Positions 1,814-9,653 of a stretch of DNA of 64,000 nt are shown here, one piece after another. Source of the stretch: Desulfonatronovibrio magnus (GTDB taxonomy: Bacteria; Desulfobacterota; Desulfovibrionia; Desulfovibrionales; Desulfonatronovibrionaceae); NCBI RefSeq assembly GCF_000934755.1, contig NZ_KN882175.1, positions 210,456-274,455 of the forward strand. The letters are read 5' to 3'. The notes beneath the pieces are model-generated. The model made no database searches. It worked only from the letters and a program-made list of their open reading frames with translations, and was not told the origin of the DNA. Position 1 is the stretch's first letter, and each line of letters opens with the position of its first letter. The position numbers and the translations under genes are program-made.

Positions 1814-2686
1814 TCAGTTAATTCGTTCTTTGTCAAATAAATATGCATGCTCTGGAGTCCTTTTCCCCAAGGAATCATGCGGACGTTCCTGATTATAAAA
1901 GAGAAAATAATTCTTCAAATTTTCGAAGGCACCTCGGCCATCACTGTAATTCTTGAGGTAGACCTCTTCGTATTTTACTGATCGCCAAAGACGTTCGATA
2001 AATATGTTGTCCTGGAAGCGACCTCGCCCATCCATGCTGATATTGATCTGGGCATCTTTTAGTCTGTCTGTATGTTTAGGGCTTGTAAACTGAGATCCCT
2101 GGTCAGTATTAAAAATATCCGGCTTGCTAATGCTCAGGGCTTCCTCAAGAGCCTCGAGGCAAAAGTAGACATCCAGAGAGTTTGACAGACGCCAGGATAA
2201 AACATAGCGGCTGAACCAGTCCATGATGGCCACCAGGTACAGAAATCCTTTATCCATTCTGATATAGGTTATGTCAGCTGCCCAAACCTGATCAGCTCGG
2301 TTGATATCCAGATTACGCAACAGATACGGATATACATTATGTTCCGGATGTGGACGACTGGTGTGGGGTCCGGGCACTACGGCCATGATGCCCATCTTGC
2401 GCATCAGTCGCTCTACACGCTTGTGATTGACCAGCTCTCCCTGACTGCGTAACCAGTCAGTCATTCTGGGGCTGCCGTAAAACGGACGCCTTGTGTACTG
2501 TTCGTCAATCATCCGCATCAGGAGCTCATTGTAACTGTTGTCACGACACTGTTGATAATAATAAGAAGATCTGGGCAGTCCCAGAAGTTCACATTGCCTG
2601 CTAACAGGGATGAAACTGTTGTCAGGCTCAATAGCATGGCGCATATACTTAACCGAGCAGGCCAGATTTTTTTTTAAGCCAGTCAA
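1814..2686 (-). CDS. IS3-family transposase OrfB (DDE catalytic part)
   Basis: This is the catalytic half of an IS3 transposase with an HTH_21-like start (VSRQCELLGLPRSSYYY) and an integrase (rve) core. The DDE residues are visible in AADITYI, NTDQGSQFTS and NIFIERLWRSVKYEE. The C-terminus FYNQERPHDSLGKRTP is typical. It would be made as an OrfAB fusion by slippage in the A run at 2667-2675. The frame is full length and free of stops. OrfB lies in the +1 frame relative to OrfA rather than the usual -1 frame (see findings). Confidence 0.9.
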   Translation of the reverse strand: MTGLKKNLACSVKYMRHAIEPDNSFIPVSRQCELLGLPRSSYYYQQCRDNSYNELLMRMIDEQYTRRPFYGSPRMTDWLRSQGELVNHKRVERLMRKMGIMAVVPGPHTSRPHPEHNVYPYLLRNLDINRADQVWAADITYIRMDKGFLYLVAIMDWFSRYVLSWRLSNSLDVYFCLEALEEALSISKPDIFNTDQGSQFTSPKHTDRLKDAQINISMDGRGRFQDNIFIERLWRSVKYEEVYLKNYSDGRGAFENLKNYFLFYNQERPHDSLGKRTPEHAYLFDKERIN

Positions 2687-2936
2687 GTTCCACCTTGAGC
2701 TGGCCTATTTGCTGGTATAGCTGGGCTTCTATCTCCTCTTTTTCCTTGGTTCTTTTTTTGTGAGAACCATCGAAGAGTTCTGGAGTATTTTCAATGAGCT
2801 GCTTCTTCCATTTGGAAATTTGATTTGGATGAACTTTGTACAGGCTGGCCAGCTCAGCCAAGGTCTTTTCTCCCTTGTATGCCTGCAGGGCTACCTGGGC
2901 TTTGAAAGAAGCGCTGTGATTTTTTCGTTTGGACAT
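2649..2936 (-). CDS. IS3-family transposase OrfA (HTH DNA-binding part)
   Basis: A 95-residue HTH_Tnp_1 type protein (SASFKAQVALQAYKGEKT, LASLYKVHPNQISKWKKQL) followed by a leucine-zipper-like stretch ending LKVELDWLKKK. OrfA binds the element ends and, alone, usually represses transposition. It overlaps orfB by 38 bases, with a run of nine A residues (coding sense) at the overlap. Confidence 0.88.
   Translation of the reverse strand: MSKRKNHSASFKAQVALQAYKGEKTLAELASLYKVHPNQISKWKKQLIENTPELFDGSHKKRTKEKEEIEAQLYQQIGQLKVELDWLKKKSGLLG
2667..2675 (-). promoter_or_regulatory. Homopolymer slippage site in the IS3 orfA/orfB overlap
   Basis: Nine consecutive A residues on the coding strand sit in the orfA/orfB overlap. 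OrfA reads AAA AAA AAA TCT; orfB reads AA-T CTG. Joining the frames needs loss of one A or gain of two, as transcriptional slippage on long A runs can give. Ordinary -1 ribosomal frameshifting does not reach orfB. Confidence 0.55.
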
Positions 2937-3354: not shown

Positions 3355-3540
3355 GCTGAAACACTTTTAAGAGAGCTGGAAGCCCGTGGACACCACGATA
3401 TTCACGACATAACCCTTATGGCATTGAAAACTGGTATGCACTTTTCTGAAATTGCAAAGCTTGCCTGGGAGAACATTGACCTGTCAAACCTGATCATTAT
3501 TATAAATGACTCAAAGAGTGGCGAGGTTAGCAAAACCTCA
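3355..3540 (+). pseudogene. Tyrosine recombinase/integrase fragment
   Basis: After a TAG stop at 3352 the plus strand encodes LLRELEARGHHDIHDITL followed by MALKTGMHFSEIAKLAWENI and DSKSG. This matches the box I region of phage-type tyrosine integrases (TGMRxxEIxxLxWxxIDL), including E but with H in place of the usual arginine at the catalytic box (TGMHFSEI). No second half (HxxR, Tyr) follows: the frame runs into the antisense of brxL at 3540. It is a short internal remnant, probably of the integrase that brought the island. Confidence 0.7.
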
Positions 3541-5583
3541 CTCCCTGATAAAAGTCACCTCAAAGGCCTTGCAGGGGCGGTATTGCTGCAGGCGGTTGGC
3601 AAAGGTGAAGTGGTCATTCATATCATAGCGCTGGAATATATCTAAGCCCCGGTCCAGGCTGATTTTCCAGCCGTGGTCAGTAACTATGTGCCTGGCATGT
3701 ATAGAACCGGCAGCATTAAAGTTCCAGGTGAAACTTATCCCTATTGAATCTGCTGACTCCTTGATCTGGTCCAGAAACTGTTTCTGCTGATCCGGCTTTT
3801 GATCATCTTCTGAGGTGATAAGATGGACATTGCTTTCCTCTTCCTTGAGCTTGATTCTGGCCAGGGACTCAAGAAATTCCATAAAATTGCGGATCTGAAA
3901 AAATGCCCTGATATACGGATCTGTTACTGTAATCTTGCTTGCACCCTTAAGATAGGGGCCAAAAAGCCCTTCATAGGAAATGCCTCGCTGATTTTCCTGG
4001 ATAACTATGTGCTGCTCAGTAAGTTCCTGCTGGGGAGCCGTATCCTCTTGTGCTGACAGATCAGCAGGATCCCCTGAATCTTCAGGCTGCTCACTGACAT
4101 CGTTTTCACTCAGGGTGCGGTGATAGTATTTTGGATACTCACGTTCTTCCAGGGTTTTGACTGAATATTTCTTGTTGCTTTCATCTGTATAGCTGAAATT
4201 AACCCTGGCGTAAGTGGAGTCAATGCGCATGAGCTGGTCTTTGACCCGCTTGCGGCCCTCAACAGCAAAGTCCAGGATTTCCCGAATTTCTTCAGGAGTT
4301 GCCTGGCCATGAGGAAAAATAATCTTCATCAGCCCGGAAAAAGTCTTGTTAATAGCGTCTCTATCCCTGGTGGCTATATCAGACGACAGAGTATAAAGTT
4401 GTTTATATCTGTCTGAATAGTCATGGTTGCGCATGGCTCTCAAGATTTCAGCAAGATAATCTACCACGAATCCATAGCCGTCAGAAAACATCTCACCTCT
4501 GATTATGTCCACCTCCCAGCCGGGGATATAAAAATGAATCCGGTCCAGAAAAGCTGAATCATGATATTTTTCAGGCAGATCACAAAACAGGGCTTCGTGC
4601 TTGAGCATATAGGGAACAGTATGACTGGTATTGCCCACAAAGGTCATGGATGCTTCAGCTCCCAGAGTTTCCACACCTCTGGAGAAGGATTTATTGGCCA
4701 TGTAGTTCTTCAAAATGTCAACAAGGGCCTTGTTCACCTGTTTCTGCTTCCCGGCAAATTCATCAAAAGCCACTACATCCCAATAGCCTACCAGGCCGAT
4801 TTTGCCGCTTTGATTGTTGACAAAAAGCTTGGCCACAGTGACTTCACCCCCTGAGATAAGTATGCCATGAGGTGAAAACTCAGAATATATATGAGATTTG
4901 CCTGTCCCTTTGGGGCCAAGCTCAATAAGATTGTAATTTCGTTCGCAAAAAGGAATGAGACGAACCAGCTGGGTCAGCTTGCTGCGGCGCCCAAACATTT
5001 CAGGATTAAAACCAATGCTTTTCACAAGCAGGTCAATCCATTCCCGGGTGGTAAAATCCTTTCTTGTTTCTATATAATTGTCATAATCAAAATTGGATAG
5101 TTGAATGGGCTTGAGACTTGATAAAATCCACGGAGAGATCCTCTGATCTTCGGTAAACACATATTCTACATCAGCTATGCACCATACCCCACTGACCAGA
5201 AGCTTGGGATGACTCTTAACAGTCCCGGAATCAACCAGAACCTTTTTGATACCCAGATTAGAGAATTGAGCCTCATAGTTATCTGTCTTATCATTCAGGT
5301 CCACGCTGATCTTATCTATAACCTTGTGCCGTCCCTTTTCCTTGATTGTCGAACGGATAAGTCCTGCTTCGTTGCGATGGACATAATGTCTGGACAGAAT
5401 TTCCCTGACCGTATCAATACCGGACTGAATGCTGGCTTCGTCATCAGTGGCGCAGTACTGACCAAGCAGATATTCCAGAACATAAGTCGGCACAATGGCG
5501 TTGCCCTTGACTGTCTTGACCAGATCTTTGCGGACTACAAGACCTGCAAAAAGCTGACTGATTTTTTTATCCAGTTCCATCAT
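3538..5583 (-). CDS. brxL: BREX protein BrxL with AAA+ ATPase core and MIT_C-like C-terminal domain
   Basis: A 681-residue protein that looks full length. The N-terminal BrxL domain (KFxGLVVRKDL-like start, YVLEYLLGQYCATDDE) is followed by an AAA+ core with Walker A GPKGTGKS (223-230), Walker B VVAFDEFAG (about 270-278) and sensor FVGNTSHTV. An acidic/Gln-rich linker (about 490-533) leads to a C-terminal domain (534-681) that does not show a Lon Ser-Lys dyad. It resembles the PLD-like C-terminal domain of MITD1 (SYEGLFGPYL, DPYIR, HLITS, IHARHIVTDHGWKI, RGLDIFQ, RPCKAFEV). BrxL is the DNA-binding hexameric ATPase of type 1 BREX. It is the only intact-looking gene of this locus besides most of brxA, and an IS66-like MITE sits 46 bases upstream of its start. 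Confidence 0.9.
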   Translation of the reverse strand: MMELDKKISQLFAGLVVRKDLVKTVKGNAIVPTYVLEYLLGQYCATDDEASIQSGIDTVREILSRHYVHRNEAGLIRSTIKEKGRHKVIDKISVDLNDKTDNYEAQFSNLGIKKVLVDSGTVKSHPKLLVSGVWCIADVEYVFTEDQRISPWILSSLKPIQLSNFDYDNYIETRKDFTTREWIDLLVKSIGFNPEMFGRRSKLTQLVRLIPFCERNYNLIELGPKGTGKSHIYSEFSPHGILISGGEVTVAKLFVNNQSGKIGLVGYWDVVAFDEFAGKQKQVNKALVDILKNYMANKSFSRGVETLGAEASMTFVGNTSHTVPYMLKHEALFCDLPEKYHDSAFLDRIHFYIPGWEVDIIRGEMFSDGYGFVVDYLAEILRAMRNHDYSDRYKQLYTLSSDIATRDRDAINKTFSGLMKIIFPHGQATPEEIREILDFAVEGRKRVKDQLMRIDSTYARVNFSYTDESNKKYSVKTLEEREYPKYYHRTLSENDVSEQPEDSGDPADLSAQEDTAPQQELTEQHIVIQENQRGISYEGLFGPYLKGASKITVTDPYIRAFFQIRNFMEFLESLARIKLKEEESNVHLITSEDDQKPDQQKQFLDQIKESADSIGISFTWNFNAAGSIHARHIVTDHGWKISLDRGLDIFQRYDMNDHFTFANRLQQYRPCKAFEVTFIRE

Positions 5584-5880: not shown

Positions 5881-7392
5881 TCAAAAATCAAAATCGCTGG
5901 TAAATGATCTTCTCAGTATGTATCTGAGGGACTTATAGTCTTTGTAATGACTGGTTCCAGAAACTTTTTCCAAAAGCTTGAGTATCACTTCCTGATTGTT
6001 AAACTGATCAGCCTTGCTGGTCAGCAGGAAGCGAACCTTTAGTTCCCGATCTCTTGGATTATCCGAGACAATATCAAATGAAAGATCATGAGAATCGGAA
6101 ATGAGTTCGCATTCAAGGGTATATATACCCGCCCTGAGATTTCTGGGCCGGACTTTGTCACTTACCGGATTTTCCTGATAAAAGCCCACTGCAAGCTGTC
6201 CAGAAGTAATGATATTCCCGGCTCCGGCAAGAATATTCACACTTACTGCGGAAATATTGCTTTTACGCTTTTTGTTCACCTTGAGGACAGGCACAACAAC
6301 TTCCTGCAGGGCTGCACCACCGTGCACAAATCTGCTTCCAGAACCTCTTAAGCGCAGCCGGTTAATGGATCTGGGTATCTGTATCTCCACATCCCCATCA
6401 AGCTTCAACAAGGATGATGTAAACTTGTGCAGCCCAGGAGCATCCTTTAGACCTTTACCCAGCACAAATCTTCTGTCCCTGAAAAATATTTCATCACCGC
6501 AGGCAGCACTTCCTGAAAAATCACTCTCCTCAATGGGCCGGTCCTGATAGATAAAGCCATGGTCGGCAGTTATGATCAGATTGCTGGCGTTGGCTCCTGT
6601 CATCTTTTTTATGAGCCTGATCATGTCCTCCAGGGTTTTTTCAACAGCCTCAAAAACCTGATCTTCTGACTCTCTCTTATCGCCTGCAGCATCTATCCGG
6701 TTATGATAAACATAAACAACATCATTTTCCCGGATCAGGATTCTGCAGTCATCACCCTTCATGGCCATAAATTCATCAGCCTTGAGTGCGGCGGCCCGCT
6801 TACCCCCCATCTTTGCCAGATGAAGGATTTTTGTTCTATTAACAAGCCCAACAGAACTTTGGCCATCAACCAGCACGGCAGAGGTCTCATTTTCAGCCAA
6901 GGCCAGTTTTCTGTGAGGCAGAAGGGCAGCCATACCCATCTGGGTATAGCTTGGGAGCATGGTCAGCATAGGTTCCAGCTCAGCTTCATAGCGGTCCTGC
7001 TGACGGATAAGGCTTAAAAGTTCTTCGCCTATTTCGTAGCGCAGGGCATCTGAGATGATTACACAGACCTTGAGATCTTTTTCCAGAAAAGGAACTTCCA
7101 GAAAGCGACGGAAAAATTCATCCTGGCGAAAATACGGCCTTGCCTCCCATTGAGAGGCAGCGTCAACATGAACTTGCCACTGATCATTCAGCTTGAGCAG
7201 GTAGCCATTGGAGTAAAAATTATCTATCTGTTCAGCCAAATCCTTCATTAATGATGCATGGCCTGGTGGTTTCAAGGCCCATAATATCTTCAAGTATTCT
7301 GTCCACATTTTTTCCATATGATTCAGCAGGCTTTTGTGCTGACATGCCTTCCTTATCAAGACTGAGCAGAAAAATATTTTCCGGTTTGACAT
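5881..7392 (-). pseudogene. pglZ: BREX PglZ (BrxZ), N-terminal part deleted
   Basis: The C-terminal half of the PglZ alkaline-phosphatase superfamily protein is present: VCVIISDALRYE (about 109-120), LPSYTQMGMAALLPH, IITADHGFIYQ (273-283) and FVHGGAALQEVVVP (about 355-368) carry the expected metal-binding Asp/His residues. Type 1 PglZ proteins are about 830 residues; here homology begins only near 7260. Upstream codons are the AAA ATPase gene read out of frame, so the first ~45 residues are not PglZ. An internal deletion therefore fused the end of the AAA gene to the middle of pglZ. The catalytic half could still be made if a start such as 7317 is used, but BREX function is unlikely. Confidence 0.85.
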
Positions 7393-8380
7393 GGGTCAGT
7401 ACATGGGGTGAGTGAGTTGAAATAACAAACTGACAGTTGGGGAATGCTTCCGTTAGTCGGGGCACAATAAGGCGTTGCCATTTTGGATGAAGGTGCAGAT
7501 CAATTTCGTCAATTAGGACGACTCCTTTTCCATGCAGAGGGTCGTCTAAGTTAGGGTTGGCTATGGCCATTCGTCTGGCCAGATCCCCAACCATGGCCAT
7601 AAGGCATTTTTCACCGTCAGAAAGCTGATTGACAATAAGAGCCTGGCCATTTTTTTTGACTTCCATGCGCAAAGGGTTTCTTCTTACGGCAAGATCTGTA
7701 AGCTCAGGCATAAAAATACTCAGGGCCTTTCGTACTGATTCTAATTGACGATCTGGAAATGATAATTTGTTTGGTTCATTAAATACATCTTATATTTCAG
7801 GATGGCGTCGCATCTCATTTTCCAGGTCTTCCCTTTCTCTGAACCATTCAAAAAAGGTCCTGAAATTTACCCCGCCTGTGAGAGATTCTTCATAGGCTGC
7901 CAGGAGATTGAATTTATGTTTTGATCTGATTCTCAGAGGAATATCCAGTACTGCTCTGTTTACTGGGTAATAGACCATAATGGGCAAATCGGTATTTTCA
8001 CTTTCCTCAGTTATACGATCTTGTATATGTTTAGTATGTTCATTTAGTTCATTAAAATCAGAACGCTTCTTCAACTTGGAATGTCCCTGACGAGACTTGA
8101 CAATCTTCCATTTGATATCCTGGCTCTTATCGCTGCATGCAATATTCAAAGAGGCAACAGACTTGCCGTTCATTATATCGCTTTCAGTAATGGGGCGGCC
8201 TGATGATCCTGAGTGCTTGACCCGGTTCACAAACCAGGAAAGCATGATCGCAGCCGCATCCAGCACACTGGACTTACCCGAACCATTGACTCCCACAAAG
8301 ACATTCAGCTGGTCATGAAAGTCCAGACTCAGGGACTCAGCGCCGCGAAAATTGGTCAAAAGCATATTTTTTATATTCAT
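7232..8380 (-). pseudogene. BREX-associated AAA ATPase with in-frame stop and deleted C-terminus
   Basis: The frame starts 12 bases after the pglX stop with a GAGGACA ribosome-binding site. It is an OLD/RecF-like AAA ATPase: Walker A GVNGSGKSS (30-38), then ABC-type signature QLSDGEKCL, Walker B GVVLIDEIDLHLHP and H-loop ISTHSPHV. A TAA at 7790-7792 interrupts it; the frame continues unshifted on both sides (HPEI-stop-DVFNEPNKLSFPDRQ), so this is a point nonsense change, not a frameshift. After MGLETTRP (about 7265) the sequence switches to pglZ, removing the last ~50-100 residues. Similar ATPases accompany some type 1 BREX loci between pglX and pglZ; their role is not settled. Confidence 0.82.
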
Positions 8381-8392
8381 AAAAATGTCCTC

Positions 8393-9085
8393 TTAAGTTG
8401 ACAGCCCAGGCACTTTTTTCAAGGCCTTGCCAAACTTGGGATAATTGACCTTAACCCCATCATCAAGGTCGATTTCAATCTTTTCAACTGCCAGGGGATA
8501 AAGAATCTTACGTTCGTAATCCTCAAGATCGTTTATGATCTTCTTGATTTTCTCAATTTCATTTATGGCTCTGGTTTTCTCACTTGATGAGGCATTGGTG
8601 CTGTTGCTCACACCCTTTAAGTGCTGTTTGCGGGAACTTAACTTGACCAGAAACTCGCGCAGATACTTGTTCAAAACAATACTTGCAGTATCAGGCTGAT
8701 AGCGGTGCATGTAGATCAGGGCATTAAAACTGCCCTTGGGGCTGGAAAACATCCAGTAGATGGGCCTTTTTTTATAGCGCCGGACATGGTCGTTGTAAAA
8801 ATCCTTAAGCAGATATTTACGCAGATTTTTGCCCAGAGCCTTTTCAATAAAGCGCAGATTGTCTTCAAAATTCTCCCGGCCAAAGGTGATTTTCAGAAAT
8901 TCTTTGAACCTCTCTGCCAGGTCATCTGTGAACCAGTCACCATCAAGAATGGGAATGACATTTTCTTTGTCCGGGGCAAAGGTTGGCTCAGGAACCTGCT
9001 TCAGATAATCCTCAAAGGTTTCACCCTGATTGGCCAGAATAAGACCTGGCTTATCTAAGGAATATCGGCCGAACATGCAGCAAGT
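8393..9085 (-). pseudogene. pglX: BREX adenine methyltransferase PglX, C-terminal remnant
   Basis: About 230 residues match the C-terminus of PglX (about 1200 residues): CMFGRYSLDKPGLILANQGE, FLKDFYNDHVRRYKKRPIYW, SSPKGSFNALIYMHRY and DLDDGVKVNYPKFGKALKKV, ending at the natural stop. The methyltransferase domain with its NPPY motif is missing. Upstream the sequence runs directly into the last codons of brxA in another frame, so a deletion removed brxB, brxC and most of pglX. The remnant has no start of its own with a ribosome-binding site and is probably not made. Confidence 0.88.
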
Positions 9086-9653
9086 ATAAGTCCTGTTTCT
9101 GCTGAGCTGCCAATAAATCTGCCAGTTCACTACTGATAATGGCAGGCAATATCTGATGCTGCGCCGTGATCAACTGAGCCTCCCGCATCATCCTGAAAAG
9201 TACCTGGCGCAATTTCAGCCTGGTTGCAGGCTTTATTCTGTCTAAGCTGTCATCCCATTCCGCTTTTGCATTAAAAAACATATCAAATTCTTCATGAGGA
9301 ATATCCGGACGAAAGGTGATATAGCGTTCTCTCAAAATCTCAGTGGCAAATTCACGAATAAATTGATGGGCTCTGCAGACACCCACCCACAGCAGGTATC
9401 CTTTTTCCAGGTCAGAAGTATGTCTGAAATATTCAATTTCATTTGATGACAGGGTCTTGAGGCGGGAGCAAATCTGGCCGGATATTTTTTGTGAACTGGC
9501 TGACGAACGAAGCTGAAGAAGGTTCTGATCCATTACCTTTTTTCTTACCCTGTCCCAGTCAGGCAGGTCAGAATAAAGGTCAATAAACATGGAGGACTCA
9601 AATATAAAAAGCCCCCCAGTGGTAAATGACATGGAATATTTCTTTGGTGGCAT
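9051..9653 (-). CDS. brxA: BREX protein BrxA (DUF1819), last residues replaced
   Basis: A 200-residue protein with the BrxA pattern YSMSFTTGGLFIFESSMF, LLQLRSSASSQKISGQI, SRLKTLS, YLLWVGVCRAHQFIREFA, FFNAKAEWDDSLDRI and KLRQVLFRMMREA. BrxA is a small DNA-binding helical protein, first gene of type 1 BREX operons. Homology ends near residue 190; the final DLYLLHVRPIFLR is mostly pglX sequence read out of frame because of the deletion junction at about 9075-9090. The fold may survive. Transcribed away from tRNA-Leu, toward the other BREX remnants. Confidence 0.88.
   Translation of the reverse strand: MPPKKYSMSFTTGGLFIFESSMFIDLYSDLPDWDRVRKKVMDQNLLQLRSSASSQKISGQICSRLKTLSSNEIEYFRHTSDLEKGYLLWVGVCRAHQFIREFATEILRERYITFRPDIPHEEFDMFFNAKAEWDDSLDRIKPATRLKLRQVLFRMMREAQLITAQHQILPAIISSELADLLAAQQKQDLYLLHVRPIFLR

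What the first reader, a model, noticed from the sequence alone, without database searches (positions are those of the whole stretch)
3538..3990. BrxL carries a MITD1-like C-terminal (MIT_C) domain
Residues 534-681 match the C-terminal domain of human MITD1 segment by segment: SYEGLFGPYL, DPYIR, NFMEFLE, HLITSEDD, IHARHIVTDHGWKI, RGLDIFQRY and RPCKAFEV. That domain has a phospholipase-D-like fold and binds membranes in eukaryotic abscission. No Lon Ser-Lys dyad is seen. A membrane- or nucleic-acid-binding effector module joined to the BREX AAA+ ring would be a different way of working from a Lon protease.
Basis: partly seen in the sequence, partly recalled or inferred. Interest (0 to 1): 0.68.

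Follow-up and report, generated by a model that had tools for sequence, protein, structure and literature searches.

The report
Phage-defence BrxL with MITD1-like tail
This bacterial anti-phage protein (BrxL) ends in a phospholipase-D-type domain of the same family as the membrane-binding tail of the human cell-division protein MITD1; about a third of known BrxL proteins are already reported to carry such a domain, but its family tie to MITD1 and to bacterial dynamins does not appear in the papers I could read.

Summary
Residues 534-679 of the 681-aa BrxL (window 3547-3984, minus strand) match Pfam MIT_C at E=3e-45 and human MITD1 directly at 2e-19. The predicted domain superposes on the MITD1 C-terminal domain at 1.6 A over 151 residues. 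No Lon_C match was found, whereas a second BrxL in the same genome has Lon_C. The domain is under purifying selection. Its key residues (D555, Y557, R559, Q563, N566, H629, R631, R645, D648) are nearly invariant in 131 domains, human MITD1 included. HARHIVTD is an HxRx4D variant of the HKD motif. MIT_C-type BrxL lies beside PglZ in 76 of 77 testable loci. The variant is already published as 'BrxL with C-terminal HKD-endoDNase' (1030 of 2913 type-1 systems; PMC12839542). New here, as far as I could check: the shared family with MITD1, at least two exchanges between Lon and MIT_C tails, MIT_C on bacterial dynamins, and MITD1 falling beside one BrxL/dynamin group. The most likely function is a PLD-fold effector acting on DNA held by the AAA+ ring; membrane binding is not excluded. 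The window's BREX locus is a deletion remnant in which brxL is still whole.

The parts
3538..5583 (-). brxL, whole ORF, 681 aa
   Evidence: TIGR02688 E 3.7e-196; PADLOC PDLC02508 over residues 1-681, 1175 bits
5161..5553 (-). BrxL_N domain (residues 11-141)
   Evidence: Pfam PF20442 E 2.9e-48
4192..5130 (-). BrxL AAA+ ATPase (residues 152-464)
   Evidence: Pfam PF13337 E 4e-130; residues 1-482 of the full model align with BrxL 8emh Z 30.4
4015..4125 (-). flexible linker (about residues 487-523)
   Evidence: model pLDDT below 50 at 487-518; dN/dS 0.47 over residues 471-520 against 0.05-0.08 in the neighbouring domains
3547..3984 (-). MIT_C / PLD-like C-terminal domain (residues 534-679)
   Evidence: Pfam PF16565 E 3.2e-45; MITD1 4a5z phmmer 2.4e-19; structure Z 22.7 to 2ymb; dN/dS 0.079
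3907..3921 (-). DPYIR motif (residues 555-559)
   Evidence: D 130/131, Y 130/131, R 128/131; kept in human MITD1
3676..3699 (-). HARHIVTD = HxRx4D motif (residues 629-636), variant of the HKD motif HxKx4D
   Evidence: H629 130/131, R631 131/131, D636 116/131; human MITD1 has H, R, N
3640..3651 (-). RGLD motif (residues 645-648)
   Evidence: R 130/131, G 131/131, D 131/131; also conserved in 45 sequences not found through this motif
5881..7392 (-). pglZ remnant: C-terminal part only (residues 383-859 of an 859-aa homologue)
7232..8380 (-). PtuA-like ATPase split in two ORFs (7790-8380 and 7232-7711)
   Evidence: PADLOC PtuA matches on both halves
8393..9130 (-). pglX remnant: C-terminal part only (residues 947-1177 of a 1182-aa homologue)
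9051..9653 (-). brxA
   Evidence: PADLOC BrxA E 2.1e-73

Best explanation
BrxL here is the 'HKD/PLD-tailed' form of the type-1 BREX effector. SHOWN: an MCM-like AAA+ part joined by a disordered linker to a PLD-fold domain of the MITD1 C-terminal (MIT_C) family, with a nearly invariant residue set that includes HxRx4D, DPYIR and RGxD. INFERRED: the AAA+ ring assembles on phage DNA as the solved BrxL does; the tethered PLD domains pair (PLD nucleases of one motif act as dimers, from general knowledge) and use the His629/Arg631 site on phosphodiester groups, most likely cutting or nicking the DNA held by the ring, as an added effector beside PglZ.
For: Domain and fold. The nearest fold matches after MITD1 include the ATP-dependent restriction enzyme SauUSI (Z 9.8-10.0), NgoAVII R protein (8.7-9.0), Nuc (8.3-8.4) and BfiI (8.0-8.1). 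Conserved site across 131 domains, and across 45 sequences found without the motif pattern. Purifying selection on the domain, dN/dS 0.079, next to a relaxed linker at 0.47. Context: PglZ in 76 of 77 loci with enough upstream DNA, PglX in 47 of 49. Published reading as HKD-endoDNase with an HRD motif (PMC12839542). BrxL binds dsDNA as a ring (PMC10164562).
Against: No nuclease activity is reported for this domain in any paper I could read. The catalytic Lys of HKD is Arg everywhere, and the Asp is replaced by Asn, Ser or Gly in 15 of 131. Human MITD1 keeps His and Arg yet is described as a membrane binder (title of Hadders 2012, cited). Dynamin fusions of the same domain fit a membrane role. 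Fold matches to the nucleases are at Z 8-10, a level the tool calls middling, and lipid enzymes score alike.
Confidence: 0.55

Rival explanations
1. The domain is a non-catalytic lipid-binding module, as described for MITD1: it brings the BrxL ring to the inner membrane, where phage DNA enters or where the cell is damaged in abortive infection.
For: Same family as MITD1, up to 49% identity between human MITD1 and BrxL group II; same domain at the C-terminus of dynamin GTPases in three genomes; catalytic Lys replaced by Arg.
Against: The polar site (H, R, D, Q, N) is nearly invariant, more than a mere surface patch would need; BrxL is a DNA-bound ring; the BREX context is DNA restriction.
Confidence: 0.25
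2. The domain only joins rings: it replaces the Lon-like tail as the tail-to-tail dimerisation module of the BrxL double ring and has no catalysis of its own.
For: The Lon-type tail of Acinetobacter BrxL is inactive and joins two rings (PMC10164562); the two tails have been exchanged at least twice, as if one can stand in for the other.
Against: A long disordered tether suits a mobile effector better than a rigid joint; the conserved polar residues are not explained.
Confidence: 0.15
3. Lon-type protease domain, as the name BrxL suggests.
For: Database names.
Against: No Lon_C match in this protein while the genome's other BrxL has one at 9e-12; fold is MITD1/PLD.
Confidence: 0.01

Closest known systems
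BrxL with C-terminal HKD-endoDNase in type-1 BREX (PMC12839542; first reported by Li et al. 2025, not readable here)
   Same: Same BrxL parts, tail of PLD/HKD type replacing the Lon-like domain, HRD motif, BREX type-1 context
   Different: That paper does not mention MITD1 or dynamins; the window copy sits in a deleted locus
Human MITD1 C-terminal domain (PDB 2ymb, 4a5z)
   Same: Same Pfam family and fold, same conserved site (H, R, DPYIR, RGLD, RPC)
   Different: Attached to an MIT domain that binds ESCRT-III, Asn in place of D636; membrane binding and cytokinesis in eukaryotes
Acinetobacter BrxL (PDB 8emc/8emh)
   Same: N-terminal and AAA+ parts, 43-44% identity, Z 28-30
   Different: Its tail is Lon/RadA-like; no match beyond residue about 482
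PLD-type restriction nucleases SauUSI, NgoAVII R, BfiI, and Nuc
   Same: PLD fold; NTP-driven in the case of SauUSI
   Different: Z only 8-10, HKD with Lys (from general knowledge), 7-13% identity

Membership tests
BrxL (TIGR02688 / BREX type 1) | BrxL_N plus BrxL ATPase | tested here: met
BrxL (TIGR02688 / BREX type 1) | Part of an operon with intact brxB, brxC, pglX and pglZ | tested here: not met
   Only brxA, the C-terminal parts of pglX and pglZ, and brxL remain in the window; the only BrxC over the cut-off in the genome is on contig C52, and a second locus on C127 has PglX, PglZ and BrxL. Related MIT_C-type BrxL genes do sit beside pglZ and pglX
MIT_C (PF16565, MITD1 C-terminal domain) | Profile score above the curated cut-off | tested here: met
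   154 bits against 25
MIT_C (PF16565, MITD1 C-terminal domain) | Same fold as the MITD1 C-terminal domain | tested here: met
   Z 22.7, 1.6 A, 151 residues
MIT_C (PF16565, MITD1 C-terminal domain) | Binds membranes | not testable with these tools
   needs a liposome assay
HKD / phospholipase D nuclease | HxKx4D motif | tested here: not met
   HxRx4D in this protein; Arg in 131/131 domains, Asp in 116/131
HKD / phospholipase D nuclease | PLD fold | tested here: met
   PLD-fold structures fill most of the list below MITD1, Z 7-10; Pfam lists no PLDc family for this protein at E<=10
HKD / phospholipase D nuclease | Nuclease activity | not testable with these tools
   no assay
Lon protease (Lon_C) | Lon_C domain with Ser-Lys dyad | tested here: not met
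   no Lon_C match at E<=10

The most novel reading that the evidence does not exclude
The C-terminal domain of the eukaryotic abscission protein MITD1 comes from a bacterial defence module: MIT_C domains on BrxL and on bacterial dynamins share one conserved site with MITD1, which falls inside the BrxL-II/dynamin group, so MITD1 may still hold, or has only recently lost, an enzymatic site first used against phages.
Probability: 0.4. Interest if true: 0.72.

Novelty: new member of a known kind. Interest (0 to 1): 0.42.

Why it matters
How BrxL restricts phage is unsettled, and about a third of type-1 BREX systems with BrxL carry this tail. Recognising it as the MITD1 family gives two testable readings (DNA cleavage or membrane binding) and a set of residues to mutate. 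It also links a eukaryotic ESCRT cofactor to bacterial anti-phage proteins and bacterial dynamins, and raises whether human MITD1, which keeps nearly the whole site, has an untested activity.

Tried and rejected
The papers on MITD1 structure (PMC3491508) and on the Menshen system (PMC12065111) are not held, so the statement on membrane binding by MITD1 rests on the cited title. Loci could not serve as centres for the genome search; genome handles were used instead. MIT_C was not found in the phage collection. Weak MIT_C hits in an ABC transporter (G355) and a DEAD/MZB helicase (G307) fall below the cut-off for the whole protein and are not counted. A Lon fold was considered and rejected. Two ORFs (L009/L041 and L136) join other sequence to an MIT_C tail and look like rearranged or chimeric contigs; they were not used as architectures, although the L136 domain stayed in the MIT_C tree.

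Full report
OBSERVATION. The 681-aa ORF at 3538-5583 (minus strand) is a whole BrxL. Pfam gives BrxL_N 11-141, BrxL_ATPase 152-464 and MIT_C (PF16565) 534-679 at E 3.2e-45, 154 bits against a cut-off of 25; no Lon_C is listed at E<=10. NCBIfam TIGR02688 and a PADLOC BrxL model (PDLC02508, residues 1-681) agree. A plain phmmer search of the PDB finds human MITD1 (4a5z E 2.4e-19, 2ymb E 4.3e-19) for residues 523-672, while the solved Acinetobacter BrxL matches only residues 3-471. A 7-sequence profile of the domain finds MITD1 at 3e-43.

FOLD. The domain alone was predicted at mean pLDDT 86. Its best structural matches are MITD1 4a5z (Z 20.6) and 2ymb (Z 20.4); next come SauUSI (10.0), phosphatidylserine synthase (9.1), NgoAVII R (8.7), NucT, Nuc and BfiI (8.1-8.5). 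In the full-length model residues 1-482 match BrxL 8emh (Z 30.4) and 523-681 match MITD1 2ymb_A (Z 22.7, 1.6 A, 151 residues); no BrxL alignment runs past residue 482. Residues 487-518 are disordered (pLDDT below 50). The AAA+ part of that model is of low confidence.

CONSERVED SITE. In 131 distinct MIT_C domains (human MITD1 among them) the following are nearly invariant: D555 130, Y557 130, R559 128, Q563 131, N566 130, T590 128, H629 130, R631 131, R645 130, G646 131, D648 131, R669 131; D636 is D in 116, N in 10. The genome scan was seeded with the pattern [LI][DG]RG[LF]DI[FY]Q, which biases R645-D648, so the count was repeated on 45 sequences found by Pfam or plasmid searches only, with the same outcome. 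HARHIVTD reads as HxRx4D, the HKD motif with Lys replaced by Arg. Human MITD1 keeps every one of these except D636 (N). dN/dS against the nearest relative (Desulfonatronovibrio, L043) is 0.030 in BrxL_N, 0.052 in the ATPase, 0.47 in the linker and 0.079 in MIT_C, so the tail is maintained and the linker is freer to drift.

HOW COMMON AND WHERE. In 395 genomes of the phylum, 38 have a BrxL ATPase match and 7 an unbroken BrxL with MIT_C. A scan of the GTDB species collection gave at least 572 relatives; the 80 best cover many phyla. Of 120 ORFs with the domain examined at that point, 114 carry the BrxL N-terminal/ATPase part in the same ORF. PglZ lies in 76 of 77 loci with 2.5 kb or more upstream, PglX in 47 of 49 with 6 kb or more. 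Plasmid BrxL proteins of Methylomonas, Mesorhizobium, Rhodococcus, Hymenobacter and others have it. PMC12839542 reports 1030 of 2913 type-1 BrxL with an HKD-endoDNase in place of the Lon domain, with an HRD motif; this is the same domain by position, motif and fold, although I could not compare accession lists.

EXCHANGE OF TAILS. On a tree of the N-terminal plus ATPase region (41 rows) the MIT_C label needs three changes, forced by well supported branches, and a single MIT_C clade is rejected (p-AU 1.3e-5). The genome of the window itself carries both kinds: the window BrxL with MIT_C and one on contig C127 with Lon_C at 9e-12. One long-branch group (L034, L035, L200) is involved in the count; the exchange around L180/L211/L033, with the Lon-type L021 as sister, does not depend on it.

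OTHER CARRIERS. The same domain ends dynamin-family GTPases in three genomes: Candidatus Thiodictyon plasmid (Dynamin_N 2.8e-20, MIT_C 2.7e-21) and G412 (Dynamin_N 2.3e-22, MIT_C 3.9e-48), with the closely similar ORF of G561. In G412 the next gene, an SF1 helicase, matches the PADLOC candidate defence family PDC-S68; G561 has a closely similar neighbour. It also occurs with Sel1 repeats (L216) and with IF2_N (L212).

TIE TO MITD1. One BrxL group (L033, L211, L180, L145/L146) is closer to human MITD1 than the window protein is: L033 against 4a5z E 1e-37, up to 49% identity for L145. In the domain tree human MITD1 lies in a set of eight rows with six BrxL and one dynamin (96/87). The tree is unrooted, holds one eukaryote and has long branches, so direction of transfer is not shown.

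THE LOCUS. The window's BREX is a remnant: PglX keeps residues 947-1177 of 1182 and PglZ 383-859 of 859 relative to L047, and the PtuA-like gene is split by a stop. No brxB or brxC was seen in the window ORFs examined; the only BrxC over the cut-off in the genome is on contig C52. brxL is whole and, in comparison with L043, shows purifying selection; that comparison covers the time since the two lineages split and does not prove that the gene is still in use after the deletions. An IS3-type transposase pair lies next to it at 1814-2936 (by sequence).

MECHANISM. Shown: architecture, fold, conserved site, context. Inferred: that the site acts on phosphodiesters, that the domains pair, and that DNA held by the AAA+ ring is the target. 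BrxL forms DNA-binding rings that pair through their Lon-like tails (PMC10164562); an MIT_C tail could pair in the same place. I give the nuclease reading 0.55, membrane tether 0.25, ring-joining only 0.15.

VERDICT. Observation right; interpretation right on the domain and on its not being a Lon domain, but the variant is already described, and membrane versus nucleic acid is open. The unexpected part is the evolutionary tie to MITD1 and the dynamin fusions.

Noticed in passing
L213:6574-9417; L214:6221-8992; L215:4967-7840: Bacterial dynamin-like GTPases with a C-terminal MIT_C domain; in L214 and L215 next to an SF1 helicase, which in L214 matches PADLOC candidate PDC-S68. Possibly a two-gene defence system that joins membrane remodelling and a MITD1-type domain.
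   Followed up: partly
L034:1-19001 and L035: A divergent BREX-like cluster: SspC/BrxC-like ATPase, weak PglZ, BrxL group III with MIT_C, type IIG-like methyltransferase, with an Avs3a-like gene next to it in L034. Type-4 BrxL is reported to lack C-terminal extensions, so this may be a separate subtype.
   Followed up: partly
window 5881-9653: Deletion remnant of a type-1 BREX operon: brxA, C-terminal pglX, split PtuA-like gene, C-terminal pglZ; a second locus with PglX, PglZ and a Lon-tailed BrxL lies elsewhere in the genome (contig C127).
   Followed up: yes
L216:7098-10307: 1070-aa protein with MIT_C followed by 17 Sel1 repeats, with a large ORF resembling a type IIG methyltransferase upstream.
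   Followed up: no
L047:4633-5916: SduA (DUF4263, Shedu) gene inside a type-1 BREX operon between pglX and pglZ, at the place where the window has a PtuA-like gene.
   Followed up: no
window 1814-2936: IS3-type transposase pair just downstream of brxL.
   Followed up: no
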